NCBI GenBank assembly: GCA_015179045.1
Contig: WHUZ01000001.1
Span: 310,001 to 374,000 of the forward strand
Length of the DNA: 64,000 bases
Source: Kalaharituber pfeilii
Lineage: Eukaryota > Ascomycota > Pezizomycetes > Pezizales > Pezizaceae
Reading direction: 5' to 3'
Position numbers and translations under genes: made by a program. The notes under the pieces were generated by a model. That model did no database searches. It had not been told where the DNA came from and saw only the letters and a list, made by a program, of their open reading frames with translations. Each line of letters starts with the position of its first letter. The stretch's first letter is position 1. Shown in pieces: positions 14,103 through 37,455 of this stretch.

Positions 14103-14140
14103 GCCCTGCCATGGCGAACAGCTACAAGCGGGGTCACGTG

Positions 14141-14167
<27 letters not shown>
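14103..14167 (+). mobile_element. Tiny family-2 retroposon, 65 bp with 14-bp TSD
   Basis: Flanked by ATACCAGTCATAAC at 14089-14102 and 14168-14181. The insert is about 39 nt (GCCCTGCCATGGCGAACAGC, then TACAAGCGGGGTCACGTG) plus a run of A. CCCTGC and GCGGGG can pair in the RNA. No internal coding sequence or A/B boxes fit in this length. Confidence 0.85.
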
Positions 14168-14171
<4 letters not shown>

Positions 14172-14920
14172 CAGTCATAACTAAGCGGCGGAATGGCTGT
14201 GATCGAAGACTAAGCCTCAAAGAAAGCTTATTTTCGACTAGTAACACTGCGACATTGACCAGAGAAGCAAGGGGTAAGGTGCGACCTGTTCGTGTTACCT
14301 CTAATACACAAATTCGAATGCGCAGGGTTTCAACCTAATTTCAATCCGATAAACCAACAATTAAGGATTGATCGAAAAGCAGGAAAAGAAAACAAGGAAA
14401 AGGGGAAAAAAATAGGCCAGTTTTGAGAGTAACATGTTACCCCGAATTACAGTAGTACTGTAAGGCTCCCGCGAAATTACTTCCCATCTTCATGATGTGG
14501 AGGTTGTGGCTGGCAGAGAAGAACTTCATCTGCACCGGAGGAATAATTCTATTGCCCTTTCCGTAGTATAGTTCAAAAATCACAACATGATACCTGAACC
14601 AACTTAGCTAAAATTATGATCATGGTGTTCCGCATTAACTAGTTGGGCATGAAGTTCTGGATTCAACCAAGTCGCCTATGATAGCTGTACGAAGCTTAGA
14701 AGGGTCGATGTGGTATCGATTTTCGTGATGTAGAGCCTGTACGGAGTATAGATGAAGTTGAAACTCGTGTCGAAGCTCAGGCAGAAAAGCGAAAGCATTT
14801 GCAGTAGCAGTGGGTGTATGGAGAGTAATAGCAACAAGTGAGATACGCGAACAGGTTGTTTCAGAGTAATACTTATCATGCAAAGTATCCTTCTTTTTTT
14901 TCTTTTCATATCACATATCG

Positions 14921-15388
14921 TTACTCTCTACAGCGGGGCAGTAGTAACAGGGTCCGGTGCTGCCAGCTGCAGAGACGAGGATCGCAGCGAAAAAAGATGG
15001 AAATTATGCACGGTAACAAAATATAATAAATGCTCGTGGTATATGCCTCAGGTCCCTTAACCAAAGCTTTAAGCACTCGAATATTTGAACAAATCAACAT
15101 ATCAAACACATTGTGTGTGAAACGCTCAATAGCAATGGAATCTTCTACAAGGGCATCCGATGGCGATGTTGAGCGACGGTAAGGAAATGAGCCGCGCCGT
15201 AGGTAGTATAGAACCAGCCATTGATTCAGTAACTTCGGAAATCGTTGGTATGGGATATACCTCATTGTTGCGAATATTTCAGCTTGGCACACTTCGTTCC
15301 AGTTGAGCGCGCCAGACACAAGTACCCACAACCGTCGGTTAGTTAGGTTCGTATGGATGCATCCACAATTGCCAGCATTCGGTGCCAT
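14921..15388 (-). CDS. Unrecognised 155-residue ORF
   Basis: An ATG-started frame of 155 residues with ordinary composition and a hydrophobic segment near its C-terminus. No domain recognised, no clear promoter, and the codon pattern gives no strong support. It could be chance or an exon of a longer gene. Confidence 0.2.
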   Translation of the reverse strand: MAPNAGNCGCIHTNLTNRRLWVLVSGALNWNEVCQAEIFATMRYIPYQRFPKLLNQWLVLYYLRRGSFPYRRSTSPSDALVEDSIAIERFTHNVFDMLICSNIRVLKALVKGPEAYTTSIYYILLPCIISIFFRCDPRLCSWQHRTLLLLPRCRE

Positions 15389-15507
15389 GGACGCAGAAGT
15401 AACTCAAAACTCCAATTTCCATGTGCCACAGCCTGTCCAGTTTCAAAAGATGCGCACCATTTCCAGCCTTTGCAGGTGAAGAGTGCCATCACCACGAGAA
15501 TTTTTTT

Positions 15508-15566
15508 TTTTTTCGGGGGGGGGTCACGTAACTCCGCATACAGGCTACCAGCCTATGCCAGGGAAG
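15508..15566 (-). mobile_element. Tiny family-2b retroposon
   Basis: Poly-T, a short G run, then the complement of CCCTGGCATAGGCTGGTAGC, CTGTATGCGG and AGTTACGTGA. It shares the start CCCTG and the end TTACGTGA with family 2, but its hairpin uses different bases (GCAUA/UAUGC and GGCU/AGCC, loop GGU, UG bulge). Flanks match at 8 of 10 positions (ACCACGAGAA, AGCACGTGAA), so the duplication is probable, not certain. Confidence 0.55.
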
Positions 15567-16630
15567 CACGTGAAGATTGAAGCTATTGCTCATCAGACAA
15601 CTGACCCAATCCTCCCGGCAAATAATTCCATCCCACATGTGTAAGCAGATTTCTATTCATCAACCATAAACCATGTTCGAAACTGGCTCTAAACAAAGCG
15701 AGATAAACACCTCTGCTCATAATAAATATTCGAGGGTCTGACACCAAAGTATGCTATCGTTTCCACTTTACGGGCAGGAATAGATTCAATGATACGTTCC
15801 CGAACCTGAGCTCCATCTTCATGCACTACAGTCGAACCTCCCATATCGGATCCTGTCATATTGGATAAAATCCTCCAGTCCCGGCCTTATCCAATAATAC
15901 AGGTTTGACAATATCTAAAGATTGGCAATAGCCCCGGGGAGTAAGAATTATAAGGTTACAGACAGGGGCGTTTGTTCAATCCTGTTACTAATTGCCATAC
16001 TGTAGACACTCCTAGTTTCACTTTTTTTGGAATGACGAAGCCTGACTCGAGCGTGAGGTTACTCTACACCATGTTAGCGATCTACTTTTCCTAACTTATT
16101 GCATCGCACCTACTCTAGTTAGCTGCAGGCTTTCGGCTACAGTAGTCTCGGCCGGGCAGTTAATCTGAAAACGGCTAAATGGAAAGAAAAAAAAAAAAAA
16201 AATAAAAAAGTTAAAAAATTGATAAAAGTAAAATATAGATTTTTTTTTTTTTTTGGAATTGGAGCATAGACCTGCGACATAATTCCATATACCGCAGGTA
16301 CGTCATGGGCGTGTTGAAAAGAAATGGCCCGTATGGAATCTTGTATACAGCATATGTAGAAAACTGAGGAGGGAGTGGGAGCAGAAATGTGGTAGTTTTT
16401 CTTAGTGGGTACTTAAGGTATCGTTCTTTGGAGGCAGAATTTTGGTCTTATGTTATTTCATCTTTCATATTGTGTATTTCAGTTTCGTGGTTCATTTGGA
16501 ATCTAATTACCCCATTATTTGTAGTGTAATATGCATGTGTTTGTTTATTCAAGTGCAAGCTTATCTGACATGGGTACAATGAAACCAAGCTACAAAAAAA
16601 AAAAGAAAAAGAAAAAGGAAATACAAGCAC
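15567..16630. other. Intergenic, no gene seen
   Basis: Only low-complexity A/T runs (16184-16255) and a fragment at 15828-15900 (ACAGTCGAACCTCCCATATC, CCAATAAT) that resembles a Tc1/mariner end. The matching opposite end was not found. Confidence 0.45.
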
Positions 16631-16683
16631 TTTTTTTTTTTTTTTTCACGTAACCCGCTTGCAACTGTTCGCCATGGCAGGAC
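16631..16683 (-). mobile_element. Tiny family-2 retroposon, 53 bp with 12-bp TSD
   Basis: AAATACAAGCAC at 16619-16630 and 16684-16695 flanks poly-T followed by CACGTAACCCGCTTGCAACT and GTTCGCCATGGCAGGAC. The unit body is about 38 nt. Confidence 0.85.
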
Positions 16684-16967
16684 AAATACAAGCACAGGGG
16701 GTGGGAAAATGATTCTGATGATTTGTACATCTGCAGGGAAGAAAATGGAAAAACAGGGGCGTAATCGAAAGATGAGGGTAAGTGATATATGACAACAAAT
16801 CAAAAACAAAAGGGTAACGAAAAAAAAAAAAAAAGGTTTTTAATGTCAAAGGTTAGGGCATGGCAGGAAACTCTGAAAAGCTTGCTCTCCAATTCTAGAT
16901 CCATCATCCCAGACTCCGTCCAACGCATTCTCAGGAACACAAATTCTGCAGGCTTCCTCAACAAACC

Positions 16968-17012
16968 GGCACGCGAGTAATGATATATAAAAAAAAATAA
17001 AAATAAAAAAAA
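16968..17012 (+). mobile_element. 45-bp LINE-tail insertion with only about 21 nt of element
   Basis: TTC(C/T)TCAACAAACC at 16954-16967 and 17013-17026 (14 bp, one mismatch) flanks GGCACGCGAGTAATGATATA followed by an A-rich tail. Only the 3' arm base of the family-1 hairpin and the terminal GTAATGATAT are present. Confidence 0.8.
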
Positions 17013-17100
17013 TTCTTCAACAAACCAGAGCCTGTTCAGCACGACCACTGTCGTTGACCTCACTGTTACCCTTATTCCCACCTACCGTCCATCTCGTCCA

Positions 17101-20100
17101 TCACTGCCGCCACGTCGGCCATCTCCACACACCCTTCACGCTCCCCTTCAGTTTCATCCTTTCCAACACCTTCCTCCTAACCTTCCCCCATGCGTCCCTC
17201 ACCCCTATCCCCGTCTCCTGCATCTTAAAAGCCGTCACCAACATCTCTTCAGTCCATAACACATATACTTTCCTCCTTTCCCATTCCTCTTCGCGCCCTT
17301 TCCCCTTCTGGCTTCCGCTCCCATCCACCTCGGCCCTCAACACAGCCCCAGCCTCCCTCCACCACCCCTGCCCCACCCGGCTGAGGCCATCGCCGCACGG
17401 TACGCCTTCCGCCGCTCAATGTCCCAGCCCAATGTAATACGCCCTTGGACCTTCCTCTCAAAGTCCGTTATTGACATCTCAGGTTCCAAGACACGTGCCA
17501 GCGATGTAAGCATATCGATAGTTTCCATGTCACAATCCTCGTTATGAGGAGCCTGGGTATCGGCACTGAAGCCTGCACAGAGGTTTCGGAGCACATCAAC
17601 CCAAGGCCACGGCCCAGGGCGGGTCTCGGCTTGGGTGTAGATGTGTTCTTGGAGGGTGTCCCAGCATGCGCTGAAGAGGAGAAAATAGTATTCCCTGATT
17701 GAACTTTCGGCATCATGAACAACATTGAGGTTGGAGCGGAGGGCGCCTGGGGCCAGCCAGGCGATTTTGAGAAGGCGGAGGTAGAGCGTGATGGCTAGGT
17801 CGTCTAACGAAGGCCTACACATTTGAGATTGTGTGGCGTCTGTGAGAACCTTTGAAATGGTAAAAGATACCAGTGATAGGGATTCACGGACAGTGAAGTC
17901 AGAAAGCGAAACGCCGTCGTCATCTAGGCTTGAATCATAACCCTGGGTAGCAAAGTATGCAGCTCTGACACCAACGTAAAATTGCGAAAACATGAATTTT
18001 CCTGCCGTGGAAATCCCGTGTGTGCAAGGGTGTTCATCCAGGGGTTCGGCAATGTACCAAGGCACTGTAGGGGATTCTGGAAGTTCTAGAAATTGGGTAA
18101 GCTTGCGTTTCCTGGGATTATCAGTGCTGGCATAAGCCGTGGGCGATGATGATGGCACAATAGGAAGAAGTTGAAACGATGACGGGCTTGCGGCAGAAGG
18201 ACTTGGGAAACGATTATGAATAGGAAGGGGATCTGCCCTGCGGGAGGTTGGCAAAGTCATAGCTCTTTGCTTCACAGTAGCATAATCGAATGTGAAGCTC
18301 GATAAGATAGAACAGTTAGCGGGAGGACGAACAGGAGTAGTAACAGCTCTTTTCCTCGATGTAACGGGACTGGAGCCCAGACTTGGTGCAGGTGGGGAGG
18401 TCTCTGGTGAAGATGAGCACACCACAATCGGGTTTTGCTGACTTGCTCCCCTCCACTTTGTTGGTATCACAGGCGCAAACCGGCATGTGTCCCGGGTGAA
18501 GGAGTCCGACTGGCAGTCTGGGTCCCGTCAGTTTCAGACCCAGCCTCAGGATACGAGGAGGAATAGAAGCAAGGCGAAGAAAGTCGCAATATTGGCCCTG
18601 TGGCTTTAATTTGGAGTGGTTTGCTTGGTGGTACGGGCGTCGATAATGACGAAGATATATGCTGTGCAGGAGAACTAATGGGAGCAGCGACATGGCTGCC
18701 GATTACGAGTGTTTGGGTGTACGAGGATCTATTGGTGGACGCCAGTGAGGAACCTCGGGAGGTGTTTCTTCGGCACTTTGGCGAAGAAAGCGGATAAGCG
18801 GGGGTCGCAAGAGGAAAGCTTGCATCGGGTTCCTCTGCCTTTTTGGAAGCTGAAGGATTGTACAAGTTGGGTGTGGGTGATTTTGTTGAACCCATTGTGT
18901 AGATATCCTCGTTGTTGTTTTTGTTATTTTGTATTTGGCGGAGGTTTTCTTTCCCGCAAGACATTTGTAAGGGTGCTGAAAAACAAGGGCTATTAGGTTT
19001 AACATTGCTCGCAACAGAACTCTTGTTGGTACTGCAGACTTCTTTTACTGCCTGCGGACAAGAGTTGGCAACGTCTTGTAGCGAGCATTGTTCGGCGGCT
19101 AGGTTTTGTTGTGTATCCTGCGACACTGACCTTGTAATGCTGATTGACAAAAATTCAAAAGCTGTTTCTTGCAACGCTCCAACCGGGATCGAGGAGCTTG
19201 GCCTCGATATTGAGGCTAGCTCTCGCTCATTGAGAGCAATGAGAGGAGCATTGATTTCCTTTAATGACGGTGCTGCAGCAACAGATTTCCGCGTCAAGTG
19301 TTTAGACGGTTTTTGAGCAACTGGCGCTGTTATACTTGATGTCGTGGACATTGTATTTTGGTCTAGGATTCCGATCAATGTAGAATGTGAATTTGGCGGA
19401 GTTTGTACGGTTAGTCGAGAGAATGTACTTTCTTCACTATGCTCAATCCCTTGGAGGGGCTCAGTGACCTTTGATACCGTCGCTTTGAATGTGTGCACCG
19501 GCGCTTGTTCTGCAACTTCATTCGCGTGAATGTCCATAGCCTCGACTACAGGCGGTTCAATCGCCTCTCTTTGTATGTTATACTCCTTTCCAGGCGAAAA
19601 TGCGAGTCTATTAAACACATTCTCCTCATCGTCAGCGTCCTCTTCCATCTCAAAAGGATCTCGTATCCCGCTACGCTGCGTCCCTTTCCCACAGTTAAAT
19701 AAGGTAGAATGGACGGGTTGAGCGTCGAGCGAGCCCTTTAACATCGATAATCTTTTCATATGTTTCGAAATAGCAGGTTCCTCTGTCGCTTGTTCCCCCA
19801 AAATCACTTCAATTGGCTCTACCCGTTCCTTTTTGCCAGGTGTCACCTGTTTCACCAACTTTGAGTCGCCCTCTTCTCTCTCCTTCACAGCACCATTCTC
19901 ACCATCATCGTCATCATCATCATCATCAATTTCGAATGGATTGTGTTTCCCTCTATCTTTGGTTCTGCTCGCCAGGTCCTCTACCGATAATGGTTCAGCA
20001 GCAGGTGCAGCTTTCGGTGCTGACGACTGTAGATCCGCCGTTGAAAGTGCTGACACCTTACTGGCCTCGTGCTCGGTGTGCACAGCTGGAGTATAGGGCA

Positions 20101-21659
20101 CTGTGGCTCCTGTCCGACGCTGTATGCAAATGGACCAGTCACCGCCTGAACCCTCCGCCTCGACTCCTTGAACCTCCCCCTCCAGGCTATCTAGTTCTTT
20201 CATTGATACGGCGTCCACATGCCTTGCTCGCCCCTGAGATTCCGCTTCAGTAGCACTATTTTCCCTGTCATCTTTTCTCTCTATCCACTCGCTTTTCCCG
20301 TCTCTTCTCAGCGCCTCTTCCCCACTGCCCATCGTATACCGTCTCCCGTCCTCCACCTGGCCTTCCAACTCGCATAGCTGTCCCAAACTCTCCAGGTCTT
20401 CACTCATATCTCCGCTTTCATCTCCGTCCTCAGAGTCATTCAAGGTTTCCATTAAGGCTCCAGTTAGCTCCATGTCTTCACTTATGTAGTTTCCTGAAAT
20501 GGCTTCACTGTCATCACTCAAGTCTCTCTCAGTTTCGGAGTACTCAAGTTCACTGCACGCGTCCGTGTCGGGATCGGTCGAATGGGATTTTCCTAGGTCA
20601 TGCTTTTCATTCTTGTGTCTTCGCAAGATAGGCAAATCGACAAATGAGAAGGTTCGTCTGACTTTGCCCCCCTCAAGCTCCCCATTGACTATGGCTGCCA
20701 TCTTCATTTCTTTCTCTGCCGGGCCTGAGGTTTCCATCTGTGTGAGCGCTGTAGGAGCCGCCGTCGGCGTTGTTGTGCTTCCAGCTTTGATATAGGGTGG
20801 AGAATGCCTATCTTCCGGTATCTCAACCCCTTCTGCCCCCTTTTGTCATTCATGTCCTTATCCTGTCCAGCTTCGTTTGACGTTTCTACGACTATCAATG
20901 CTCGAGATTGTGGTGTTTTCTCCTTCCTACTAGGACAAGGCCCTCTAGCAGAATAAGTGTGCACTTTTAATCTTCCTGCGATTGCTAGTGTGGATGCCGT
21001 GTCGTCGCCCTCACATGGGCCGTTTGCATCAATCACCGTACCCCGGGAACTGGTGTATCTTCTATCACTTGGCTCATGCATGTTATTCCCTTCGCTGACA
21101 GTCGCATCCGAACCAATGGTATCGTTCTGAGCTAAATTGTCGCTTTTGTGCTTCTTGTTTGCCTTCACCATTTCGGTCCCTCCTGGGTCCACGAGGGGCT
21201 GCAAGGTGGTCTTTTTGGCTGGCGCTTGCCACTCAGGGTGGAGACAAAAAGAGTGGGGCTATAGATGGCCTTGAGAGGGAGAGGCGATAAAACGGGGCGC
21301 GCTCTTGAGCACTGTGCTGGGAGAAGAGCTGCAGAGCAGCTAGGGACCTTGGATGGCGCCACAGATAGAGTTGCCTGTATCCCAAGAGGCGGCATCGGAG
21401 ATGCGAACCCGAACGGAGGAGATAAAGCAGTTGGCGAAGCGGAGGACTCCAATGGGTCAAGGGTGGGTGAGTTAGTAGGTAGGCTGGAGGCTATGGCGGA
21501 TCGCACAAAAGCAGGCATCCTCGTTCGAGGGTCTGGAAGGTTGACGCCCGGGCCTATAACACTCCACTGGATTCCGGAGCCGCTGCCGTTCACTGCAGAC
21601 TCCGCGCCGAGATTCCGACACAGTTGCGCTAGGCCGGAGGGACAGGAAGAGATGGCCAT
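17101..21659 (-). CDS. Large low-complexity acidic/serine-rich protein, several frames
   Basis: Long open frames follow one another on the minus strand with small overlaps: about 21659-21180 (start MAISSCPSG), 21204-20800, 20850-18510, 18509-17340 and a possible last part 17376-17101. The 2.3-kb central frame has many Glu/Asp clusters, NPFEIDDDDDDDD near 19920, DPFEMEEDADDEE near 19640, and Ser/Pro-rich stretches, as expected for a disordered nuclear or regulatory protein. The C-terminal part (18130-17400) is ordinary and helix-rich, possibly the folded domain. The switch near 18510-18634 fits a 125-bp intron (donor GTACCA, acceptor GCCAG, branch CTGAC). Introns for the other switches were not pinned down, so frameshift decay or assembly errors remain possible. 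Family not recognised. Confidence 0.55.
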
Positions 21660-21718
21660 TCCGCAGGCCTGCGACTCCAGTGTGGGCGCTAAATAACTTG
21701 AACGCAGATCAGCAGCAA

Positions 21719-21720
<2 letters not shown>

Positions 21721-21752
<32 letters not shown>

Positions 21753-22065
21753 CATTACTCGCGTGCCGCCCTGGGGGCTATGGCGAGATTAAGTACATGA
21801 AAGGGAGTGGTTAGGTACATGAACGAAAATGGAGTGGAAAATGTCGATAATAAAAATGAGGGAAATAAAAGTGTCAAGGTGGAGGTCTCTTCCCATCGAA
21901 AATGTGTAGAATAACCCCGTCTACTCCCGCCCCTGCCCCTTCAGTAGCTCCGCCGGTTTGTCTCCTTCCCCATCCTTTTCGGGTTTTGGTGGGGTCTTAT
22001 ATCGCCATAGCCCATAGGGCGGCATGCGATTAATGAAAGAAAAAAAAAAAAATTTGGTGGGTCCT
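21721..22065 (-). mobile_element. LINE 3' fragment (family 1), 345 bp with 12-bp TSD
   Basis: TCAGCAGCAATC at 21709-21720 and 22066-22077 flanks a 30-T tail, the hairpin complement (loop variant CCA) and 3' UTR sequence on the minus strand. It sits just upstream of the large acidic-protein gene. A second, smaller copy in the opposite orientation is nested at 21999-22052. Confidence 0.82.
21999..22052 (+). mobile_element. 54-bp family-1 insertion nested in a LINE fragment
   Basis: TTTGGTGGGGTCTT at 21985-21998 and TTTGGTGGGTCCTT at 22053-22066 form an imperfect target duplication (one small indel, one substitution). The insert is ATAT plus the hairpin, GCGATTAATGA and an A-rich tail. It is younger than its host copy. 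Confidence 0.75.
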
Positions 22066-22077
22066 TCAGCAGCAATC

Positions 22078-23288
22078 AACCCACACGTATACAGAGACTG
22101 CAGGCGCCACTGTCCCTGGACTCACCCGAGTGCGTCTATGAAATGCCACAACTCCACATGCAATGTACAAAGCGCGTTTCGAAAATAAAGATGGAGATGC
22201 TGGGGGAGCCTGACTTGAGGGGCTGTGGGTATGGTGGTACATCACAGGTTTCGTCGATTTCTGAGTGTGGACAAGCTTAGTCAGCGGCACAAAGCAAAGG
22301 TGCATGGCATCATCCCACGTCTACCTTCTGTCTGGCAAAACGGGAACGGGCGCACACTGATGCGTGACCCCATGTGATGGCAATTGGGGTCAGAACAATG
22401 GCGAGCCAGACTTACGCTTAATAATGTACCAACCAGACTGGATTGGATGAGAGGAGCCGAGGTCCATACCAGGAAGCCAAGCTGATGAGTATAGCAAGTT
22501 TGGCAATGTCAAGGAGTTGCCATAACTATAGAGTGAGCAGCCTGCATATGTCAGATATGTCAGATATGCAGCATCATACACATGTGATATGCAACAGCAA
22601 TAATTGCATTATCATCATCATGTAGTGCTATATAAGCTGTACACAGTCTCAATACCAGCACAAACTATAGGCATCTAGATTAATATAGAGTGTGACTATC
22701 ATATTAATAGTATATTGTCGGTTATACAGGTACACATTAGTACCGTACTGTTGTAGAGTACAACTGATGTGTAGACACTCTCTAAAGCTACAGATATAAA
22801 GACATACCTAAGAAGATATTTTATAATAGCTGGTGGTACGGGATAATGGTTTTGGGTAGCTAAAACCTATAGTCACGGTATAGCATATCTAATATAGGCA
22901 GCCTGCTTACTCTATAGCCGTGGTGACCCCATGACATGGCCAAGCATGGCCAAACTAGCTACGCTTCCTGAGAATAGGTATTAGAGTATATGTCAAGATG
23001 AATAAGATCTCAGGTAGGATCATTAACACTTGGCAGCTCAGAGTATATCTAGCATAGGATTTGAGATATACCAAATAGATTACTACCCATCTCCTAAAAA
23101 TTGGCGCAATGAATATGCGGAAGATAATTCCATATATTCTACCATGCTCTGGCTTCAATTTGAGAGCTATTTGCACTCGCAGGAATTTTTTGTTGTAGAA
23201 TCTGGAAAATGCTCAATTTCACAGTTATGCGCAATATCTTACTACAGGAGCATACAGTGCTATGTTACAGATCTCAAGCTGTTACTAC
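22078..23288. other. Intergenic, no gene seen
   Basis: AT-rich sequence with no supported gene. GTTATGCGCAATATC at 23222 resembles a pogo-like TIR sub-repeat (CCGGGATATTGCGCA), perhaps a solo end. GTACTGTTGTAGAGTACAAC near 22744 is a partial palindrome. Confidence 0.4.
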
Positions 23289-23305
23289 TCATGTATTGTA
23301 ATATA

Positions 23306-23333
23306 AAAAGAAAAAAAAAAAAAAAAAAAAAAA
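23306..23333 (+). mobile_element. Poly(A)-only retroinsertion, 28 bp with 17-bp TSD
   Basis: TCATGTATTGTAATATA occurs exactly at 23289-23305 and 23334-23350. Between them are only A4-G-A23. No element-specific base other than A and one G is present. Confidence 0.75.
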
Positions 23334-23433
23334 TCATGTATTGTAATATAGTACTAGTAGTACCATTGCTACCATTCCTACCATTGCATGAGCAGGTGGA
23401 GTGTTGCAGTGAGTTAGTATTTACTGATGGGCA

Positions 23434-23496
23434 ATCGCCATAGCCCATAGGGCGGCATGCGAATATTGATATAAAAAAAAAAAAAAAAAAAAAAAA
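23434..23496 (+). mobile_element. Tiny family-1 retroposon, 63 bp with 11-bp TSD
   Basis: ACTGATGGGCA at 23423-23433 and 23497-23507 flanks ATCGCCATAGCCCATAGGGC, GGCATGCGAATATTGATAT and about 24 A. It starts two bases before the hairpin, as does the copy at 35410. Confidence 0.85.
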
Positions 23497-23859
23497 ACTG
23501 ATGGGCAGCTAGAGGAAGTTATTTCATAAGGTAGAGGCGTGATGCAACTGTAGATGCTATAGGAGTAGCATTTTCACTTATTTCCCTTCAAATTCAGAAT
23601 CGGCGCAGTCAATATGGTGTATAATCAATTCATCATACATATTGAGATATATTCTGTGAGATATGCCTGACATTTTTGACGTTCGGGAGGGTGCCCAGTG
23701 TGCACACCGTTACCCATACGGTACTGGTATTTGGACTTCTTTCATTAGAATCCTTTGACATAGAGTTTTTCTTTACTTTGTGATTCGAGTTATTACTTTC
23801 TTTGCTTCCTTTGTTAACATGTACAGAAGATTAAAGTAGCATGTTTTTTCTGCAATTAG

Positions 23860-25469: not shown

Positions 25470-25746
25470 CCAAATGACTGTACTGCGGCGGTTTGCAGGA
25501 GAGGAGGCATTGAGGCAATGGAATAAGGATGGGACCACTATAGTGAAAGGAGTAATGGGTTGTTTGTTCAAGGATCCGGAGGTCGTTACTTTGATCTGGG
25601 AAGAAATAAATCCAGATGTACCTTCATCATGGACGAATGGTGACTTGTCAACCAAACCTGGGCTGGTTAAGATCAGCATACCATACCCAAATTCAACAGA
25701 TTGCTCGACAGGATCCCGTCTACTATACCTTGGTAGCTGCTACTAA

Positions 25747-26312: not shown

Positions 26313-26326
26313 GAAGCATATTGCTC

Positions 26327-26437
26327 GCGGGAAACACATGTAGTTAGCTGTTAGTTTTTCTCTCTTTAAATAAACCCTCGCCATAGCCCGTAGGGCGGCA
26401 TGCGAGTAATGATATTAAAAAAAAAAAAAAAAAAAAA
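26327..26437 (+). mobile_element. LINE 3' fragment (family 1), 111 bp with 14-bp TSD
   Basis: GAAGCATATTGCTC at 26313-26326 and 26438-26451 flanks about 90 nt of 3' UTR with the hairpin (loop GUA), GCATGCGAGTAATGATATT and a poly-A tail. Confidence 0.85.
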
Positions 26438-26795: not shown

Positions 26796-26933
26796 TTTTT
26801 TTTTTTTTTTAATATCATTAATCGCGTGCCGCCCTTAGCAATATGGCGATGTTTAGTTACATAAGAGATAAACGAGACATGAAATAGAATATGAAGTAAA
26901 GTGTATGCAAAATAACATAAATAAATAAGACGA
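26796..26933 (-). mobile_element. LINE 3' fragment (family 1), 138 bp with 8-bp TSD
   Basis: AACACCTC at 26788-26795 and 26934-26941 flanks poly-T, AATATCATTAATCGCGTGCC, a hairpin complement with a decayed stem, and about 100 bp of A-rich 3' UTR including TTTAGTTACATAAGAGATA. Confidence 0.75.
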
Positions 26934-27662
26934 AACACCTCATACAGTAATCCCCGGAATTGTGGAGGATTCTGGAGAAGTCCACCGATTGAGCTAATGT
27001 GCTGAACATTTGATCAAAGCAGGAATACCCTGAGTGAGCACATTGGCAACTAATTCATCGGTAACCCCATCACACCGGCCCTGCCATAGCGAATAGCTTC
27101 TTTTACTCCTCTGGTTTTTCTCTTAACGCCACTGACCGGGATCCGGCGCATTACCGGGATCCGGCGCACTTCCGGAATAAAAACAATAGCCTCCTGTAAG
27201 GCCAAAACTTCATATAAAACAACCAAATTACACATACAGCTTGGAGAGGTATAGGAAAGTAACTTCCGCACCTCAGTTAGCCAATTGGAAATTTTGAATG
27301 ATACTCTATGGTGGTAGTTGCCCAATTAGGCATCTGAACCCTATGCAGGTGTAAAATGGCAAGATGGCTATTTAGGACCTTGAGCAAGTGCATATAGCTT
27401 CTATAGTATGTATTCAAGAGATCTGAAATGTTTCATGATGATTGGATACATATGGAATGAGTGGTGAGCCAATATCCATACATACATTTTTACTGCTAGA
27501 AGTAAATTTCGATATTCAGTTTGTATATAATTCTAAAAATATGAGGCATGTTCAGAATGCCCTAAAATATAACTCTACACATAGAAGAATATATCTTGAG
27601 TAGCCTATAGGTATAGGTATTGACAGAAAGTAGAGATCAATAGAGATATTCATCTATATATA

Positions 27663-28279: not shown

Positions 28280-28722
28280 ATATACCCAATTAGGTAATGC
28301 ATATTCCTTAATGCATCATATATGAATACTGCAGTCCTGGCTATAAAACTTCAGATATATAATATAGAGGCTTCTGAAATATTATATAGAAACTCTCAGA
28401 GTGGCCTAATACTACTTGCTCAAAGTAGACATAATTATATCTCCTTCCATATAGAAACATCTTAAATTTTAGTCTGTATATCATTGCAACATGTATAAAT
28501 ACACTCAATAATAGCCAATACATCACTGACACCTTACTTTGAGTGCATCGTGCAAGTGTACTAGAAGGTTCATTACTTATTTCTTATTTTTGTTACTTAT
28601 TTCTATAACTTTTTTATTTTCGTACTTAGCTCTCCACTACTGAACTTACTCATAAGTGATGACTTTCTTATTTACTCTCTCAATATCTCTTCTGTGAAAT
28701 AAATAGCATCTATGAATCCAAC

Positions 28723-29396: not shown

Positions 29397-29545
29397 CCAA
29401 CTATTCTCTTCACTTTATCCAGTTCTAAGAAAATAAATAGACCAAATTTAAGAAATTATGTGTAACTTTAATAAATATAATTGAGTCACTTTGAAAGTTT
29501 CTATATAATATTTCAGAAGCCTCTAGATTATATTTCTGAAGTTTC

Positions 29546-30159
29546 TTTTTTTTTTTTTTTTTTTATTTCATTAATCGCATGCCGCCCTATGGGCTATGGC
29601 GATTTTCAGTTACAGTGGTATGATGGAAAAATGATAATGAAAGAGTAAAGAAAAATCGATAATGAAAGAGTAAAGAAAAATTGAACCGTCCTATTCCTCC
29701 CCCGCCCATTCCAATATTTCCGCCATGTTTGTGTCCTTATCTAACTGTCTTATCACGTCTGCTCCTCTTGCGGTTTTCCTGTTCCATGCCGAGCAGCTAC
29801 TCTTTATGTGATCCCAGGTCTCCGGCGCTTCGCCGCACCATCTGCACTCCGGGAGGTGGCCTTTCCAATCCTGAATCTCCATTCCTTCAGTCCCTTATTG
29901 CCCAATATCCCTGCCATTGTGTCCAGATACCGGCGTTTGTCGACCTTTTGGAGTGGGCGGTAGTTCAGTCCGGCTTGGTTCCTTTCGGCAGCTCTGGATG
30001 CTTTGTATTCTTGTCTTAGTCCTGGCTCTGTCACTATCTCGTCTTCGCTTCGCAAGGCAGTACCAACTTTCGCCGCTTGGTCCGCCCCGTGTTGCCTTGT
30101 ATTCCTTTATTGCTCTTGACCCACATGATCGCAAGGTCTAGATCACCCCTGGCTGCCCT
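29546..30159 (-). mobile_element. 5'-truncated LINE with RNase H/zinc-knuckle remnant
   Basis: TTTCTGAAGTTTC at 29533-29545 and 30160-30172 (13 bp) flanks the insert. From its 5' end (30159) the minus strand encodes, over shifted frames, the end of an RNase H domain (WVKSNKGIQGN, then ADQAAKVG after a one-base shift) and a C-terminal knuckle CRWCGEAPETWDHIKSSC (C-x2-C-x8-H-x4-C) ending in EWAGEE at 29691. This is followed by a 3' UTR with the family-1 hairpin, GCGATTAATGA and poly-A. Such C-termini are typical of fungal Tad1-like LINEs. This copy assigns the family-1 tails to a LINE. Confidence 0.85.
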
Positions 30160-30781
30160 TTTCTGAAGTTTCATAGCTCAGAACTATAGCATTCATATAT
30201 GGTGCATTAAGGAATATGCATTACCTAATTGGATATATATAGATGAATATTCCTATTGATCTTTACTTTCTGTTAATACCTATACCTATAGGCTTCTCAA
30301 GATATATTTTCCTATATGTAGAATTATATTCTAGAGCATTCTGAACATGCCTCACATTTTTAGAATTATATACAAACTGAATATCAAAATTTACTTCTAG
30401 TAGTGAAAATATATGTATGGATATTGGCTCACCACTTGTTCCATATGTATCCAATCATTATGAAACATTCCAGATCTCTTGAATACATACTATAGAAGGT
30501 ATATGCACTTGCTCAAGGTCCTAAATAGCTATCTTGCCATTTTACACCTGCATAGGGTTCAGATGCCTAATTGGGCAACTACTACCATAGAGTATCATTC
30601 AAAATTTCCAATTGGCTAACTGAGGTGCGGAAGTTACTTTCCTATACCTCTCCAAGCTGTATGTGTAATTTGGTTATCTTCTATGAAGATTTGGCCTTAC
30701 AGGAGGCTATTGTTTTTATTCCGGAAGTGCGCCGGATCCCGGTAATGCGCCGGATCCCGGTCAGTGACGTTATATGAGAAA

Positions 30782-31082
30782 ATGCAAAATTTTTGTAAAA
30801 CGACTCAAAAAATATTGCAATCATGAAACGCACTGGAAAAACTCGAAAAATTCGAAAAACTTGAAACTTGTAGAAAGGAGAAAAAAAAAAAGTCATACCA
30901 CAAGTGAAAATCAATAAGGTGTCGCCTCCCCATTAGGTTGTTGCTGAAAGAGGGTGGACTATGTGTCGTATCCTGTATGTAAGGAGGGGCAGGCCGGAGG
31001 TTCTGCTCCTCTCTTCTAACCTACATTATACAAGAAAAGTTCTTAAGATTTCCGGCCTTGAGCGAAGGAATCCTCCGATAGT
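30782..31082. other. Intergenic, no gene seen
   Basis: AT-rich, with an A-run at 30885; no coding or repeat structure was identified. Confidence 0.4.
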
Positions 31083-31233
31083 ACTGTTCTCATGCCCAGC
31101 GGAGTACTAGTGCTAGCAGAGGACTGTCAATACTAATAGAAAAATCATTAAGTTAGCTAACAAGTTAGATATAGTAGAAGAGCTATCGAACCTACCTATT
31201 AAGCTAAAGCTGGGCGGTCGGACATGAGAACAG
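31083..31233. mobile_element. MITE-like element with CTGTTCTCATGCCCAGC ends
   Basis: The left end is CTGTTCTCATGCCCAGC and the right end is the complement of CTGTTCTCATGTCC...GCCCAGC, about 150 bp apart. Same end family as the palindrome at 9873-9932. No coding capacity; target duplication unclear. Confidence 0.5.
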
Positions 31234-31883
31234 AAAGCTACCGATACCAGGCTCTCATGATCTACTGTTATATTCTGTTGCAACCGCGCGCGTTCAACAT
31301 GCCACTACTTGTTTACTGACTGGTCAGTCTTGACTTATTACAGCTGCAACAGAAGTACCACGTGAATTCACGTGAGTACCTTGGCGCTGCATAATTCCAC
31401 AGCAACCCCGAGTACATTAGTGTATTGCCAGCTAAGTACTGTATTGCCGCTCTTCCCTTTGGTAACCTCCGGACCTACATAGATTTAGTAACTGCACTAC
31501 TTTATTATTTTACTTACCTTGCATTTTGTGCAACTAGCAAGCATTCAACAACAGAGGCAGACAGCGAAAGACTATGATGTTGATATCGTCAGACGATAAT
31601 AATGAATGCGGGCACGGGTTATAGTGTTGAGCAGGGGGGAGCCATGAATAGGGTTACACTCCACCGCAATGTGAGTCCCATGCATTACATAATATTTTTA
31701 TGCATTAGTCAGCCGTTCCAATACTTTTTGAGTACTAGGCCCTATGTATGCCTGGTTACGAGACTAGCCCTATGCTAAAATTCAACATCGTGATGTCCGT
31801 ACCGGTAACGTGCTGTACGGAATAACCCCCATTTTGGGTCACGAGAATGCTGCCGTGTTCACATGATAAATAATAATAAATAG

Positions 31884-32547
31884 TGTTAGGTCGAACTTGA
31901 CGGGGTTGAGTATAGAATTCCCGTTGTAATTGTAGTAACGCCAAGGGTACCAGAGCAGTTAATACATTTTAGACCGTCAATCTTGAAAAAATCGTGATAG
32001 CACTCCTGCGTCATATATACATCTCGTACCCGCACATTCACTGACCGCCTGCCCTACGGTTGTGGTGAGACATAATACCTACTCACACAATCCTGCTGAC
32101 ACAATCCTACTCACAATCTTGGTCACATAATTCTATTCACTCAGACATTGCTACTAAGTATCTATTGCTTGTTTAGGAGATCTTCATTACCCTGCCATGA
32201 CGAACAGCTGCAAGCGGGGTTACGTCAAATTAAAAAAAAAAAAAAGGAGATCTTTATTCTAATAAGAGAGATAGAAACTAATCTGTAGCTATGTAATCAA
32301 TCAGAGATACTCTAGTTTTATGAAATTGTAATATAGTTAATAAAGTTGCAATGGTTCACCAAATTATACATAATTGTGATGAGGATATAGTTAAAGCAAG
32401 AATATAGTGTTGTGGATTGCACTGTTGTAAAAGCGATATCGTGATTATACCATTAGGGAAGCAATATCATGATCATACTGTTGGGGTAGGCAAACAGTAA
32501 CATTCTTAAACGAGGTGTTTACGCTAACCGCTTGGCATGACCTAACA
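31884..32547. mobile_element. Possible solo LTR or TIR element (TGTTAGGTC...GACCTAACA)
   Basis: The termini are a perfect 9-bp inverted repeat with TG...CA ends 664 bp apart. The flanking 5 bp differ (AATAG and GTTTT), so the expected duplication is absent and the call is weak. A family-2 retroposon lies inside it. Confidence 0.35.
32189..32244 (+). mobile_element. Tiny family-2 retroposon, 56 bp with 14-bp TSD
   Basis: AGGAGATCTTCATT at 32175-32188 and AGGAGATCTTTATT at 32245-32258 (one mismatch) flank ACCCTGCCATGACGAACAGC, TGCAAGCGGGGTTACGTCA, AATT and a short A run. Confidence 0.85.
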
Positions 32548-33001
32548 GTTTTTATGCCAAGCCCACTGTGCTGCCATAGCTCGAGTGCCTATTTTTGTAC
32601 TCTACTCGTAGTTAAGGCCTGCTGCATGGATATTGCTTATGGTGCATGACATGGATCGACATCTACTCTGTACACTGCGAGGTATCTTCATCCAGAGCAA
32701 ACAGCCTAAAGCGAAGATCGAAACGATAAGTGTGAGTCAATCTGCAACAAGATTTTATCGCTTTGAGCTGCAAGGCTTTCAGCGCTATCTCTTATACTGA
32801 CCCTTCAAAGACCGCCAACATTTTTTTGCTGCAGCAGTCACTCATCTCGCTTTCCTATTACCTTCAAACGACGTCTCGCTTCAATTCTCATCCCACAATA
32901 TTCCGGAATCCCTGTTCTCGTGCCCAGACTATTACTTTCGGCCTTCGCGATCCCATACAAATCGCAAGAGGTGCATAGGAACTTCTGCATTGATCTCAAT
33001 T

Positions 33002-35232
33002 ATGGCTGCTAGCGCCCCCGACAAAACAGGCATCACAGCTGCCGGTCTGTCCACATCGCGAAAAGGCATGGCACCCGCTTTCAAGCCCACAGTGGTCACC
33101 GGCAACCCCACTACTTCAGCAATAACTCAACAAACAGCTGGGGATCTAGATACTGTTTCCGAAGCAGGGATTCTCACTCCCCAAACTGGCACATCAACCC
33201 CAACCAGAAATACTCTAGAGGTTTCGCTAGCTGGTATTGCACGAATGGACAGTCGCAGCAATGAGACTGGCCGAATCTACCCAGAGCTCACGCAAATATA
33301 TACAGGTTGTGATGAGGAGAATATGGTAATGGAGGTCAAGTTTGTGTCAAAAGCTTCCAGGAACGTGGTCTATGCATGGCGTTTTGGCGTTGCAGAGGAT
33401 AAAATCCGCCAGAGCCCAGTGTTGAAATCCGCTCTTCAGGGATGGACTGGAACTAAGGATTTGGGCACTTTGCGTACTACATTTCAAAAGGCTTCCAGTG
33501 AAAACAATCCTGAGATGGAGATGAAAGTTCTCACGCTCACTTGCCCTATCCCATTCTCGGTACCCACAAGCAAAAAGGATAAAAAGGACATTCAACAACA
33601 AGTCAATGCTGTCCGAGACATTCTAATGGCACTGCATGGGAGGGGAAAACAAATTCCGACCACATATAATTTGCATGAAGTTGAGTACCGTGTGATGTGG
33701 GCTCACTGGTTTCAATGGGTTGAACCAATCCTGACACAAATTCGACTGTGGTTTGTTGTGCTCAAACCGAAGATCACAAACAAGCTGATGAATCAAAGAA
33801 TGAAGCACAAGGAAGTGAAGTCACTGCTCAACATATCCTTCATTTTTGAATATTTTTCTCGAAGGTATATGTTAACAATGGTACCATGCTCACCTACCTC
33901 AACACCATCTTCCTTTCTCACATTTAATAACGATGTGTACGATTTCGTGATTCCAATGATGGAAATTCAAGGTTAGTCCCGCTACCAAATTCCACGTGCT
34001 CGATGTCCATATTACATAACTCATGCTAAGCGGTTACTTATGTTGCAGATCACATTACAAACACAATAGAAGATGCCAAAGGGAAGCTGAGAAAGCTGGT
34101 CAAGTTGATCCTATTCAATCTCACGAAATCCAAGAGTATCAGAATGCATCACCCTGAGCTGCACGTCAAGGGCTTCACACCGGACTGGAACAACTTAAAG
34201 AAGTCTCGCTGTTCCCCGATTATGCTCGGCGCCTTCCTCCAGAGCCTTGATGCTGAGTTCGGCCATACTGGTCTCTCTATTGCTAGTCCCGCTACAGAAA
34301 GTGCACGATTGTGGACCACATCATGTAGATTCTGTGAGGGGATGCCTTGGTCCCTCGCAGCTAATGACTCATTATCTCAGATGTTCGAAACGTTTCAGAG
34401 GGTTATTGACAGTGTGCTCCAGACTCACGAAGAGTTCCGTGTGTGCTGGTCTCCCTGTGCCTCATTCCTCCCTGAACTTCAAAAGGCACTGTTCACAATT
34501 GAACAAGAAATCGAGGGCTTTAAACTCCTAATCTCAGAGGAGCACCAGATAGATCGCATTCTTGGTCCACACAGCCAGAGCAATCAGGTTCAGAGGCAAG
34601 GGCTTATGGATTTGCTTGACAATCGGCCGCAAGCGCAGAAGGATGTAGATTGGCTTGAGAAGAGGGCCCTGGAATTGCAGTTTTCAGCGGCATCACAAAG
34701 ATTGGAGTTCTGGAAGCTGAGTGGCTACTTAAGGCGGACCTGGGACCTCCAGCAGCGGTCACCAGAGGTAGAAAGAGCTTTCATCAACGGAGCTTCGCAT
34801 CCTACATCAAAGTGGCTTCTGGCTCTATTCGTGATTTTGTTTGCTCTCGTCCTCTACTTCCTGCTCTTCAAGTTTAGTCTTGTAGCTGAGCTGATGCGGC
34901 TCGCCCTCCGCTTCCTGCTCTCCAGGTTTCTTCTTCTTGGTCATACGTATCGACTGATGCTACGGCGGCTGGCGATGTCGATGAATCAGTCGATGACTAG
35001 ACTGGCGATGTCGATGAATCAGTCGATGACTAGACTGGCGATGTTGATGAATCAGTCGATGACTAGACTGGCGATGTTGATGAATCAGTCGATGACTAGA
35101 CTGGCGATGTCGATGTATCAGTCGATGACTAGACAGGCGATGTCGATGAATCAGTCGATGACTATACTTATATACTATAGTAGATTGTTGTTACATCGGA
35201 TAATGCTGGGACTGGCGGGTGTTATCCAATAA
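33002..35232 (+). CDS. Unrecognised tail-anchored protein with C-terminal coding minisatellite
   Basis: Two exons, 33002-33971 and 34049-35232, joined over a 77-bp GT-AG intron (branch-like GCTAAG), give 717 residues. An in-frame triplet at 32990 is TTG, so the ATG at 33002 is chosen. Residues 1-80 are Thr/Ser-rich and probably disordered; 95-560 look folded and mostly helical, with a Cys-containing SLxAEFGHTGL region in exon 2. A strong membrane helix (WLLALFVILFALVLYFLLF, about 579-597) follows, then a basic hydrophobic stretch, then five full and one partial 11-residue repeats (MSMNQSMTRLA). This suggests a tail-anchored membrane protein with a repeat tail on the far side. A decayed paralogue lies at 23860-24115. 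No domain is recognised. The transposon-end sequence CTGTTCTCGTGCCCAG lies at 32912, 90 bp upstream of the start. Confidence 0.7.
34975..35164 (+). repeat. In-frame 33-bp minisatellite
   Basis: Units start at 34975, 35008, 35041, 35074, 35107 and 35140 (the last is partial) and differ by only one or a few bases each. Length 33 keeps the reading frame, so copy-number change lengthens the protein without breaking it. Confidence 0.85.
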
Positions 35233-35409
35233 AATAGTCTATCGGTTGTAAGATAGACAGATAGTATCCAATACTGCCTCTCGAAGGACCGGAGCGGTGA
35301 GAACTGGCGGGACGAACGTGCGACTGAATGCGAGTGCAAGTGCGAAAGCGTGGGTGCGAAAAGAAGAGAAGAGAAGGTTGTTGATTGTATGTGCTATAGT
35401 ACACAAAGT

Positions 35410-35466
35410 ATCGCCATAGCCCATAGGGCGGCATGCGATAAATGATATTTAATAAACAAAGAAAAA
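35410..35466 (+). mobile_element. Tiny family-1 retroposon, 57 bp with 12-bp TSD
   Basis: AGTACACAAAGT at 35398-35409 and AGTACGCAAAGT at 35467-35478 (one mismatch) flank AT plus the hairpin, GCATGCGATAAATGATATTT and an interrupted A-rich tail. Confidence 0.82.
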
Positions 35467-35478
35467 AGTACGCAAAGT

Positions 35479-35864
35479 CTGCATACATATGGTATCGCCT
35501 CACGTGCTGCCCTTATCTCCACGTGCCCTCTATGCCAAGCCATTCCGTTGTCACCGTTGGAGCGGAGAAATGAATTTTTGTGCTATTTACATGCGATCAG
35601 AACTATGGTAGATACGTATATGGATAATGAACTATACTGTGTTGTACCGGGATATTGCGCACGCACAACCGGTATGAGCGTGGGTGTGCTGCACCTAATT
35701 CCACTACTCTACGCACTGGGTCCTCTGCTGGGAGGTCGCTGGGCAAAGGAGGAAGTGAAGGCAGTATCAGATAGTTGAATGGAGAAGATTACTGAGCATG
35801 AGCGAGAGTTGATTGTATAGCAAGTGCAGAAACCAATATTAGAACGACGTAACTATAGAAAGGT
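35479..35864. other. Intergenic with a solo pogo-like TIR
   Basis: TACCGGGATATTGCGCAC at 35646 is a near-perfect copy of the pogo-like terminal sub-repeat without a partner end nearby; CCAGGATATTGCCCAC at 36731 is a diverged one. A 76-codon ORF at 35548-35778 shows no features. Confidence 0.45.
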
Positions 35865-35924
35865 TTTTTTTTTTTTTTTTTAATTTCACGTGACCCCGCA
35901 TGCAGCTGTTCGCCAAGGCAGGGC
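35865..35924 (-). mobile_element. Tiny family-2 retroposon, 60 bp with 14-bp TSD
   Basis: AACTATAGAAAGGT at 35851-35864 and 35925-35938 (exact) flanks poly-T, AATTTCACGTGACCCCGCAT and GCAGCTGTTCGCCAAGGCAG, then GGC. Confidence 0.88.
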
Positions 35925-36008
35925 AACTATAGAAAGGTAATGGAAAACTTTATACCAGTTTGTGCAGCATCACCATTTCTAAGCATCATCTCCCATGCCC
36001 CTGGACTT

Positions 36009-36074
36009 ACCCTGCCATAGCGAACAGCTGGAAGCGAGTGTTACGTGAAATAAAAAAAAAAAAAAAAAAAAAAA
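36009..36074 (+). mobile_element. Tiny family-2 retroposon, 66 bp with 12-bp TSD
   Basis: GCCCCTGGACTT at 35997-36008 and GCCCCTGAACTT at 36075-36086 (one mismatch) flank ACCCTGCCATAGCGAACAGC, TGGAAGCGAGTGTTACGTGA and a tail of about 24 A. Confidence 0.85.
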
Positions 36075-36086
36075 GCCCCTGAACTT

Positions 36087-37381
36087 CGCTCTAAAGTCGA
36101 CCCCGGAATTCCGGCTTCGCACGTAGGATTTATCTTCTTCAAGCTGATTCTGATCCATTAGGTCTACATCATCTAGGTCTGCCAGTTCTGGGCTATGGGT
36201 ATCCATTAAATGAGAGGCATACAATAGTAGTCCTCTCGACTACAAATCCACCAAAGAGACAGAAGCATGACTAGGATAAATAACCCTATCTGTTTGGCAA
36301 ATTAGTAAACCGAAATGAAAATTTCTATCACTAAGCATAACCCTATCACTAAGCATAATGATCCTTACTAGCATTGGCACTATCCACTATGACAGGTCCA
36401 GCTACCAGTAAATCCGGGAAACCGGCCGGTGAAATTGTTATCCATCCAATAAATGAAAATATCCAATAATTCCACAGGCGCCGACAAAGTTTATGCAATA
36501 TGACCGGTTATCCAGTATGACAGGTATTCAATATGACAGGTTTGTCTGCAGGAGATACAATAGGTTTAAATATGAGTGAAGAGGATTCTGACAGCTAGAG
36601 CATATGATGAAGATTTATTTTTGGTAGTCCTAGAACTTTACATAATAATTTGAAGTATGTGGAATAGTATACTACTTTTAGTAAAATTTGATGTAGTGTA
36701 TAGTTAAATATACAAGAGAATGCACGCTACCAGGATATTGCCCACTCTCCAGATACCACAACAAAAAATTATTATGAGTGCAAATGGCCCTCAAGTGGGC
36801 TAAAATTGAAGCCACAGCATGGGAGAATATGTTGAAATATCCTCCGCATGTTTTCTAGGCTTATTTGTGGCCTTTAAGTGATGACTTATTTAGTACATAC
36901 AAAATCCTATGCTGGACATGTTTTGAGTCGCCATGTGTTAATGATTTTACCCTGAGATCTTAGAGACCTTCTGCTGCCTATTTCCATGAAGTATAGGATG
37001 TTTGGTGGTGCTCAGGCTATTATGTAGAGAATTGCACTGTTATATTGAAGCATACATCTTCACTTATCCATATGCACAGCAATTCTGGCTACTATGCAGT
37101 GTAAAAGCATTGTATGCAGATTCTCTAAGGCTATAACATATAAACACATATATAATGAGGTATTTCCTGAACTGCATCAGCAAAAAAAATCGTTCGGGTC
37201 GCAAGGCGTCCCATGCGTCAGACGACCTAACGCTATGCGACCTCAACCGCCTATCCCAGTGACAGAACTTTTCCGACGGTGTGTCGGCACGCCATTACCA
37301 GTCGGCTATTCTCCTCAACGCGTGATTACTTTCTATGGCTTCCGGAATTTGGCTCTTTCAATCATGACATCCTCAACTATA

Positions 37382-37384
<3 letters not shown>
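36087..37384. other. Intergenic, no gene seen
   Basis: At 36380-36545 the words TATGACAGGT, ATATGACCGG and TATCCA(A/G)TA recur in direct and inverted order, resembling sub-terminal repeats of a Tc1/mariner-like element and the fragment at 15828-15900. No transposase or firm ends. Confidence 0.4.
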
Positions 37385-37419
<35 letters not shown>

Positions 37420-37455
37420 ATAACCCCGCTTGTAGCACGTGGCCATGGCAGGGTA
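37385..37455 (-). mobile_element. Tiny family-2 retroposon, 71 bp with 12-bp TSD
   Basis: TCAACTATAGCC at 37373-37384 and 37456-37467 flanks a 28-T run, TTAAATCACATAACCCCGCT and TGTAGCACGTGGCCATGGCA, then GGGTA. To its right the word TATCAACTA(T/C) recurs three times at about 35-bp spacing (37455-37530). Confidence 0.82.

What the first reader, a model, noticed from the sequence alone, without database searches (positions are those of the whole stretch)
14103..37455. A ~40-nt retroposon family with fixed 5' end and target-site duplications
Six insertions (14103, 16631, 32189, 35865, 36009, 37385) each consist of one unit of about 38-45 nt plus poly-A, between 12-14 bp duplications. All six begin within one or two bases of CCCTGCC (one has TCCTGCC) and end at CACGTGA or a close variant. 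Random 5' truncation of a long LINE would scatter the start points; these do not, and no longer copy is present in the window. The unit is too short for RNA polymerase III A and B boxes. It may be a minimal SINE-like retroposon, or the product of reverse transcription always stopping at one RNA structure. I know of no described element this small, but could not search.
Basis: partly seen in the sequence, partly recalled or inferred. Interest (0 to 1): 0.87.

Follow-up and report, generated by a model that had tools for sequence, protein, structure and literature searches.

The report
LINE tail-hairpin stubs inserted genome-wide
In this fungal genome more than a thousand copies of a 38-letter hairpin, the tail end of a longer jumping gene (a LINE), are scattered about, and 69 of 80 sampled copies start at the same point; they were likely made by copying RNA stubs trimmed down to that hairpin, so that RNA decay, and not random copying failure, would set where most copies begin.

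Summary
All six window insertions are real. The 78-Mb own genome holds 1,323 exact CCCTGCC…CACGTGA matches, reversed control 11. Of 80 copies chosen by their 3' end alone, 69 start at the same place. The -27 and -64 ends are 5' bases of predicted hairpins. None of the 80 starts inside the tail hairpin; one chimera elsewhere does (L186). Seven chimeras join the 3' end of a Pol III-like RNA to these two points. A second window family, with a covariation-supported hairpin, has the same anatomy, with some exceptions. The commonest hairpin variants occur in long and short copies, so a separate SINE lineage is unlikely. Best model, inferred: the reverse transcriptase copies RNA stubs trimmed to the hairpin and runs off their end. 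Main rival: RT pausing.

The parts
14103..14168 (+). family-1 stub: hairpin unit plus poly-A; duplications TACCAGTCATAAC at 14090-14102 and 14169-14181
16631..16683 (-). family-1 stub (begins GTCCTGCC) plus poly-A; duplication GTGCTTGTATTT
32189..32245 (+). family-1 stub, A-first subfamily, plus poly-A; duplication GGAGATCTTYATT
35864..35924 (-). family-1 stub plus poly-A; duplication ACCTTTCTATAGTT
36009..36074 (+). family-1 stub, A-first, plus poly-A; duplication GCCCCTGRACTT (one mismatch, by eye)
37385..37454 (-). family-1 stub, A-first, plus poly-A; duplication GGCTATAGTTGA, one extra T before base 1
23434..23497 (+). family-2 stub: hairpin with 5' end at the stem base, linker, poly-A; duplication ACTGATGGGCA
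22001..22052 (+). family-2 stub; imperfect duplication TTTGGTGGG(G)TC(C)TT, by eye
35410..35448 (+). family-2 stub; duplication AGTACRCAAAGT, by eye
26377..26437 (+). family-2 tail of a longer copy that begins about 52 nt upstream (duplication GAAGCATATTGCTC)
16967..16986 (+). family-2 copy that begins INSIDE the hairpin (20 nt); duplication TTC(C/T)TCAACAAAC by eye; counter-example to a strict rule
508..550 (-). family-2 fragment beginning at AGGGC, the 3' strand of the inner stem; no clear duplication
9222..9280 (+). family-2 tail, 5' end not resolved
10810..10865 (-). family-2 tail, 5' end not resolved
11327..11386 (-). family-2 tail, long or unresolved 5' end
11660..11734 (+). family-2 tail with a C-G to U-A double change in the outer stem
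21721..21787 (-). family-2 tail, long or unresolved 5' end
26796..26850 (-). family-2 tail, 5' end not resolved
29546..29603 (-). family-2 tail, 5' end not resolved
43379..43443 (-). family-2 tail, 5' end not resolved

Best explanation
The unit is the 3'-terminal hairpin of a LINE, and its copies were likely made when the LINE's reverse transcriptase copied RNA stubs already trimmed from the 5' side down to that hairpin and then ran off the stub's end. Shown here: the LINE parent, the poly-A and target-site duplications, the discrete 5' ends, and chimeras whose junction lies at the same points. Predicted: the hairpins themselves, with 5' bases at the -27 and -64 ends. Inferred: that the enzyme binds the hairpin and shields it while the rest of the RNA is lost (5'-to-3' exonuclease or an endonucleolytic cut), that the short RNA is the template, and that the chimeras are end-to-end template jumps onto a Pol III-like transcript.
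For: (1) Of 80 copies picked by GGGGTCACGTGAAATA9 alone, 69 start at base 1 of the hairpin within a few nt, 2 at -64, 1 at -147, 8 continue (3 of the 8 share a 3' flank); none starts 1-23 nt upstream of the anchor. A duplication is called at the -27 end for 60 of the 80, 32 of them flush. (2) Both frequent ends are 5' bases of predicted hairpins; a block to an enzyme reading from the 3' side would be expected at the 3' side. (3) Seven chimeras genome-wide carry the last bases of a multicopy Pol III-like RNA joined to the tail: 6 at GCCCTGCC, 1 at AAGCCTGCC, seven different junctions; four of seven show duplications around the whole chimera (L168 by script; L091, L191, L199 by eye). (4) Untemplated bases at the junction, mostly T, in 11-12 of 60. 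(5) The commonest haplotypes are shared by long and short copies: 5 of 42 haplotypes, 59 of 89 short copies. (6) A second family repeats the pattern: 5 of 20 fetched copies start at the hairpin base with duplications, by eye, and its first base pairs with base 30 in 98 of 100 listed copies, my hand count.
Against: No RNA data exist here: a free 38-nt RNA is not shown. A weak 4-bp hairpin (GGGU..ACCC) ends 4 nt upstream of the -27 end and could itself halt the enzyme. L186 is a family-1 tail that begins inside its hairpin (CAAGCGGGG) and is joined to the poly-A of a family-2 copy, as RT pausing would give; the decayed piece at 13960-13987 may be another. In family 2 three copies begin inside the hairpin (16967; 508-550; L022 near 2387). 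One window insertion is poly-A only (23305-23333), so copying can stop before the hairpin. The fold is only moderately better than shuffles: 42 nt z -1.8 (11 of 200 shuffles as good), 79 nt z -1.3 (22 of 200), a composite 92 nt z -0.3 (67 of 200). Family-1 stems hardly vary, so covariation there is weak. 12 of 17 haplotypes of long copies were not seen among short ones.
Confidence: 0.47

Rival explanations
1. Programmed RT stop: the template is intact long LINE RNA, and the reverse transcriptase pauses or lets go right after it has unwound and copied the tail hairpin (for example because leaving its bound hairpin, or meeting the small hairpin 4 nt upstream, triggers second-strand nicking or a template jump).
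For: In Magnaporthe, WEIRD-MGL chimeras switch at recurrent sites with predicted hairpins just upstream (PMC2104539). A 4-bp hairpin lies 4 nt upstream of the -27 end. L186 and three family-2 copies begin inside their hairpins.
Against: At the -64 end the 7-bp hairpin has been copied whole, and none of the 80 unbiased copies ends at its 3' side; the Magnaporthe motif GCC*A/U is not at these junctions; none of the 80 ends inside the tail hairpin.
Confidence: 0.39
2. An independent minimal SINE-like retroposon: some short copies are themselves source genes whose 38-nt RNA is transcribed and retroposed.
For: Short copies predominate (69 of 80; 331 long-form matches, against 1,323 units of all lengths) and have exact ends. 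25 of 42 haplotypes were seen in short copies only.
Against: No internal promoter fits in 38 nt; the commonest haplotypes are shared with long LINE copies (59 of 89 short copies); a transcript of a short copy would carry host sequence at its 5' end (inference).
Confidence: 0.06
3. Ordinary random 5' truncation of a LINE, looking fixed by chance or by search bias.
For: LINE copies are commonly 5'-truncated at various positions (PMC3747384 passage).
Against: 69 of 80 ends within about 9 nt in a set chosen without the 5' end (about 8e-74 for an even, independent spread over 158 nt; a few of the 80 are duplicated loci); no ends between -35 and -60 in that set.
Confidence: 0.02

Closest known systems
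5'-truncated LINE copies (non-LTR retrotransposons, Tad1/I-like in fungi; clade name recalled)
   Same: 3' end, poly-A, target-site duplications of mostly 12-15 bp, long relatives with endonuclease, RT and RNase H regions
   Different: Truncation mostly at one or two fixed hairpin bases instead of scattered positions; most sampled copies are only about 38 nt
SINEs that share a LINE tail (e.g. AfuSINE2-1a with the I-1_AF 3' UTR, PMC5063351; UnaSINE/UnaL2 recalled)
   Same: A 3' stem-loop tail presumably recognised by the LINE enzyme; seven copies do carry a Pol III-like body before the tail
   Different: Only 1 of the 80 sampled copies (L168) has such a body; no Pol III promoter in the rest; a separate lineage is not supported
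MINE / WEIRD-MGL chimeric retrogenes of Magnaporthe (PMC2104539)
   Same: A non-coding RNA fused by template switch to a LINE 3' part, in a filamentous ascomycete; recurrent switch sites near predicted hairpins
   Different: There the MGL part is 230-5461 nt with 28 sites and motif GCC*A/U; here two sites, 38- or 78-nt tails, another motif, and the same sites bound the body-less copies

Membership tests
SINE | internal Pol III promoter (A and B boxes) | tested here: not met
   38-nt unit read directly; no tRNA gene and no Rfam match in the window
SINE | 3' tail shared with a LINE, poly-A, target-site duplications | tested here: met
SINE | own lineage distinct from the LINE | tested here: inconclusive
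   5 of 42 haplotypes are shared by long and short copies, covering 59 of 89 short copies, which speaks against; no tree was built, and 37 haplotypes were seen in one class only
5'-truncated LINE copy | 3' end identical with a LINE that has RT and endonuclease | tested here: met
   L169 upstream of a long copy: RVT_1 E 2e-24, Exo_endo_phos_2 E 1.9e-8, RNase_H E 1.7e-5 just below its cut-off
5'-truncated LINE copy | variable truncation points | tested here: not met
   69 of 80 at one point
Tad1 clade | placement in an RT tree with named Tad1 elements | not tested
   domain order is compatible; clade name recalled, no tree built
LINE-mediated chimeric retrogene (MINE-like) | cellular RNA fused in the same sense to a LINE 3' part within duplications | tested here: met
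   seven chimeras; duplications seen for four of the seven: L168, and by eye L091, L191, L199

The most novel reading that the evidence does not exclude
The tail hairpin with poly-A is itself the main mobile unit: hairpin-tailed LINE RNAs of at least two families decay to enzyme-protected stubs, the stubs are retroposed over and over, and end-to-end jumps from a stub onto Pol III RNAs are how tailed SINEs are born, so that the genome holds a fossil record of RNA-decay footprints.
Probability: 0.38. Interest if true: 0.78.

Novelty: new variant of a known kind. Interest (0 to 1): 0.62.

Why it matters
LINE 5' truncation is usually put down to the enzyme falling off. Here a large natural sample (69 of 80 examined, from a family of over a thousand) ends at the base of the hairpin, which points to template length or a programmed stop as the cause and can be tested directly. 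The seven chimeras would show one way in which SINEs get their LINE tails. Insertions of 36-45 nt are also short enough to be missed by standard repeat annotation (inference).

Tried and rejected
Rfam gave no usable match: 0 at gathering score on the window, 0 on the Pol III-like body, one chance-level U8 at E 0.89, 0 on the LINE 3' region; so no known ribozyme or 7SL was recognised, and a self-cleaving ribozyme at the stub's 5' end is not supported. The Magnaporthe GCC*A/U switch motif does not match the junctions. The 30 best RVT_1 loci fetched (of 150 scored) do not match this LINE's RT (tblastn, 0 hits at 1e-5), so I do not know whether an intact copy of the LINE exists. The search for non-G before TCACGTGAAATA10 gave 2 places, both one duplicated full unit with a point change; it sees only copies that start right at TCACGTGA with a non-G neighbour and is therefore a narrow test. 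Covariation of base 1 in family 1: A goes with U33 in 50 of 100 listed U33 copies (49 G, 1 T, hand count), while A with C33 occurs 16 times genome-wide; this may be subfamily history, so I lean on family 2.

In print: searches listed no paper that I could see describing such stubs; the library lacks most subscription journals. Papers: PMC2104539, parts 1-3 of 5 read; PMC5063351 and PMC3747384, passages; all others listing and abstract starts only.
Full report
WHAT IS THERE. The six units are present as described: one 37-43 nt unit, a poly-A run, and 12-14 bp duplications, on both strands (36009 by eye with one mismatch). The window lies in a 78.03-Mb genome of 360 contigs. The best named hits of one window permease are Peziza echinospora (69%) and Terfezia claveryi (72%), below two unnamed ones at 78% and 74%, so the host is likely a Pezizales ascomycete; this rests on one protein.

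GENOME-WIDE COUNTS. CCCTGCCN{5,35}CACGTGA has 684+639 exact matches, reversed control 6+5; a few listed matches are visibly chance, and long copies are included. The sister form DCCCTGCC-N19-GGGGTTAC has 372+339. The 3' end GGGGTCACGTGAAATA9 with up to 2 mismatches has 877+888. A longer form, GGGTTTAGACCCAGGGGCCCTGCC with up to 2 mismatches, has 178+153.

5' ENDS. To avoid choosing by the 5' end I fetched 80 of the 100 places listed (all exact at the 3' end). In 69 the element starts at hairpin base 1 within a few nt; 2 start at -64 (AAGCCTGCC), 1 at -147, and 8 continue into a longer body (positions count upstream of GGGGTCACGTGA). Not all 80 are independent: L139/L143 share a duplication, L069/L085/L118 share a 3' flank, L134/L135 share a 5' flank. 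A script called duplications for 63 of 80: 60 at -27, 2 at -64, 1 at -147. Of the 60: 32 flush, 13 overlapping by 1-3, 15 with extra bases (8 T, 2 G, 2 C, 1 each TT, CCCT, TTTTTT; the G may be templated and the last comes from a T-rich target). Among the 17 without a call, some short ones show a duplication by eye (L111, L119, L144, L148, L151); L168 is a chimera.

EXCEPTIONS IN FAMILY 1. Scanning everything fetched, 122 of 124 distinct 3' ends have the whole hairpin (many were fetched by patterns that ask for it, so this is not an unbiased figure). The two others are L023, a diverged relative, and L186, where a family-1 tail starting at CAAGCGGGG, inside the hairpin, is joined to the poly-A of a family-2 copy. 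The decayed piece at 13960-13987 also lacks the first part of the unit.

LONGER COPIES. Of 19 readable long-form copies (20 fetched; L095 missed its target), 10 start at -64 (one of them the chimera L091), 1 at -147, 8 run over 500 nt. Most of these came from the best 40 hits, which favours copies reaching -64. Of 20 more, 6 start at -64 (two share flanks), 1 is unclear, 13 continue. A 7-kb stretch upstream of one long copy (L169) holds, in broken frames, an ORF1-like piece with a zinc-knuckle motif (by eye), an endonuclease piece, RVT_1 and RNase H pieces. So the unit is a LINE's 3' end.

STRUCTURE. The 42-nt unit folds into one hairpin, -15.4 kcal/mol, z -1.8, with 11 of 200 shuffles as good (z -3.1 with poly-A, 1 of 200); the 79-nt form adds a 7-bp hairpin that begins at AAGCC and a 4-bp one between, z -1.3. 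Folding longer pieces gives other partners in some copies. Family-1 stems hardly vary: in 45 distinct units read from loci and window each tested pair forms in 41-45 of 45. Family 2 is the better test: 30 distinct units, 94.8% of cells paired (0 of 500 shuffles), 15 cells and 3 pairs changed on both sides (19 of 500 shuffles reach 3 pairs), covariation score above all shuffles, but the number of pair types is not (460 of 500); sliding the partner drops pairing to 14-50%. In the 100 copies listed the first base and base 30 pair in 98 (A-T, C-G, one T-A; exceptions C1:405356 and C3:132617; hand count); total 1,348 copies of any length. The first base of that element is thus part of the stem.

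SECOND FAMILY. It has 16 profile hits in the window. Of 20 fetched copies chosen with the whole hairpin, 5 start at the stem base within 2 nt with duplications by eye (L170, L173, L180, L184, L188), L183 starts about 52 nt upstream, and 14 were not resolved within the 75 nt shown. So stubs are a minority in this family. Against a strict rule, three copies start inside this hairpin (16967 with duplication; 508-550; L022 near 2387 with duplication).

CHIMERAS. A 37-nt piece of an RNA with B-box-like GAGTTCGAACC occurs at 30 places. Of 22 read (20 fetched, plus L091 and L168), 12 go on as TACTTTTTT with gene-like flank, 1 as TATTTTTT, 7 join the family-1 tail, 1 (L209) joins a long family-2 tail, 1 (L203) goes elsewhere. 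The pattern TGGCTACTTCN{0,14}CCTGCC finds exactly those seven genome-wide, with junctions TACTTT|G, TACTTTTT|G, TTCA|G, TACTCT|G, TACTT|G, TACTAA|G (all GCCCTGCC) and TAC|AAGCCTGCC. Whether the RNA is Pol III-made is inferred from the box and T-run; Rfam does not know it.

MECHANISM. An enzyme copying from the 3' end that met a hairpin would be expected to stop at its 3' side; in the 80 unbiased family-1 copies the hairpin is always copied whole. Ends at the 5' base, extra bases at the junction, and joints between one RNA's 3' end and the tail's 5' end together read best as run-off from short templates. The trimming agent is not shown. RT pausing with release just after the hairpin remains a serious rival; the small upstream hairpin, L186 and the family-2 exceptions are in its favour.

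KNOWN KINDS. Magnaporthe MINE elements (PMC2104539, parts 1-3 of 5 read) are the nearest: non-coding RNA fused to MGL at recurrent sites, ascribed to pausing before GCC at hairpins. AfuSINE2-1a shares a Tad-type 3' UTR (PMC5063351 passages). Neither, in the parts I saw, describes body-less hairpin stubs in such numbers. I therefore call it a new variant of a known kind.

Noticed in passing
window 23305-23333: An insertion made of poly-A only (AAAAG plus A23) between two perfect 17-bp copies of TCATGTATTGTAATATA: a retroposon with no body.
   Followed up: partly
L186 (C2:206252-206536): A family-1 tail piece CAAGCGGGGTCACGTGAAATT-A(n) joined directly to the poly-A of a family-2 copy: a LINE-LINE chimera with a junction inside the hairpin.
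   Followed up: partly
window 13960-13987(-), 15501-15543(-), 42345-42382(-), 51049-51064(+), 27079-27098(+): Weak, decayed relatives or pieces of the unit; 27079 has only the 5' half of the hairpin, which 5' truncation does not explain.
   Followed up: partly
L210 C42:78750-79420 and L211 C113:476200-476900: The multicopy Pol III-like RNA gene lies in a repeated context with similar flanks in different contigs, as if part of a larger repeat; no Rfam family.
   Followed up: no
window 11159-11179(+): Poly-A tail after a distant relative of family 2 (ACGCGCGGTATACAAGGAATGATACATTC), possibly a third tail family.
   Followed up: no
families 1 and 2 (e.g. window 14103 and 23434): The two hairpins share GCCATRGC..AG..GCATGCG and may be homologous LINE tails.
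   Followed up: no
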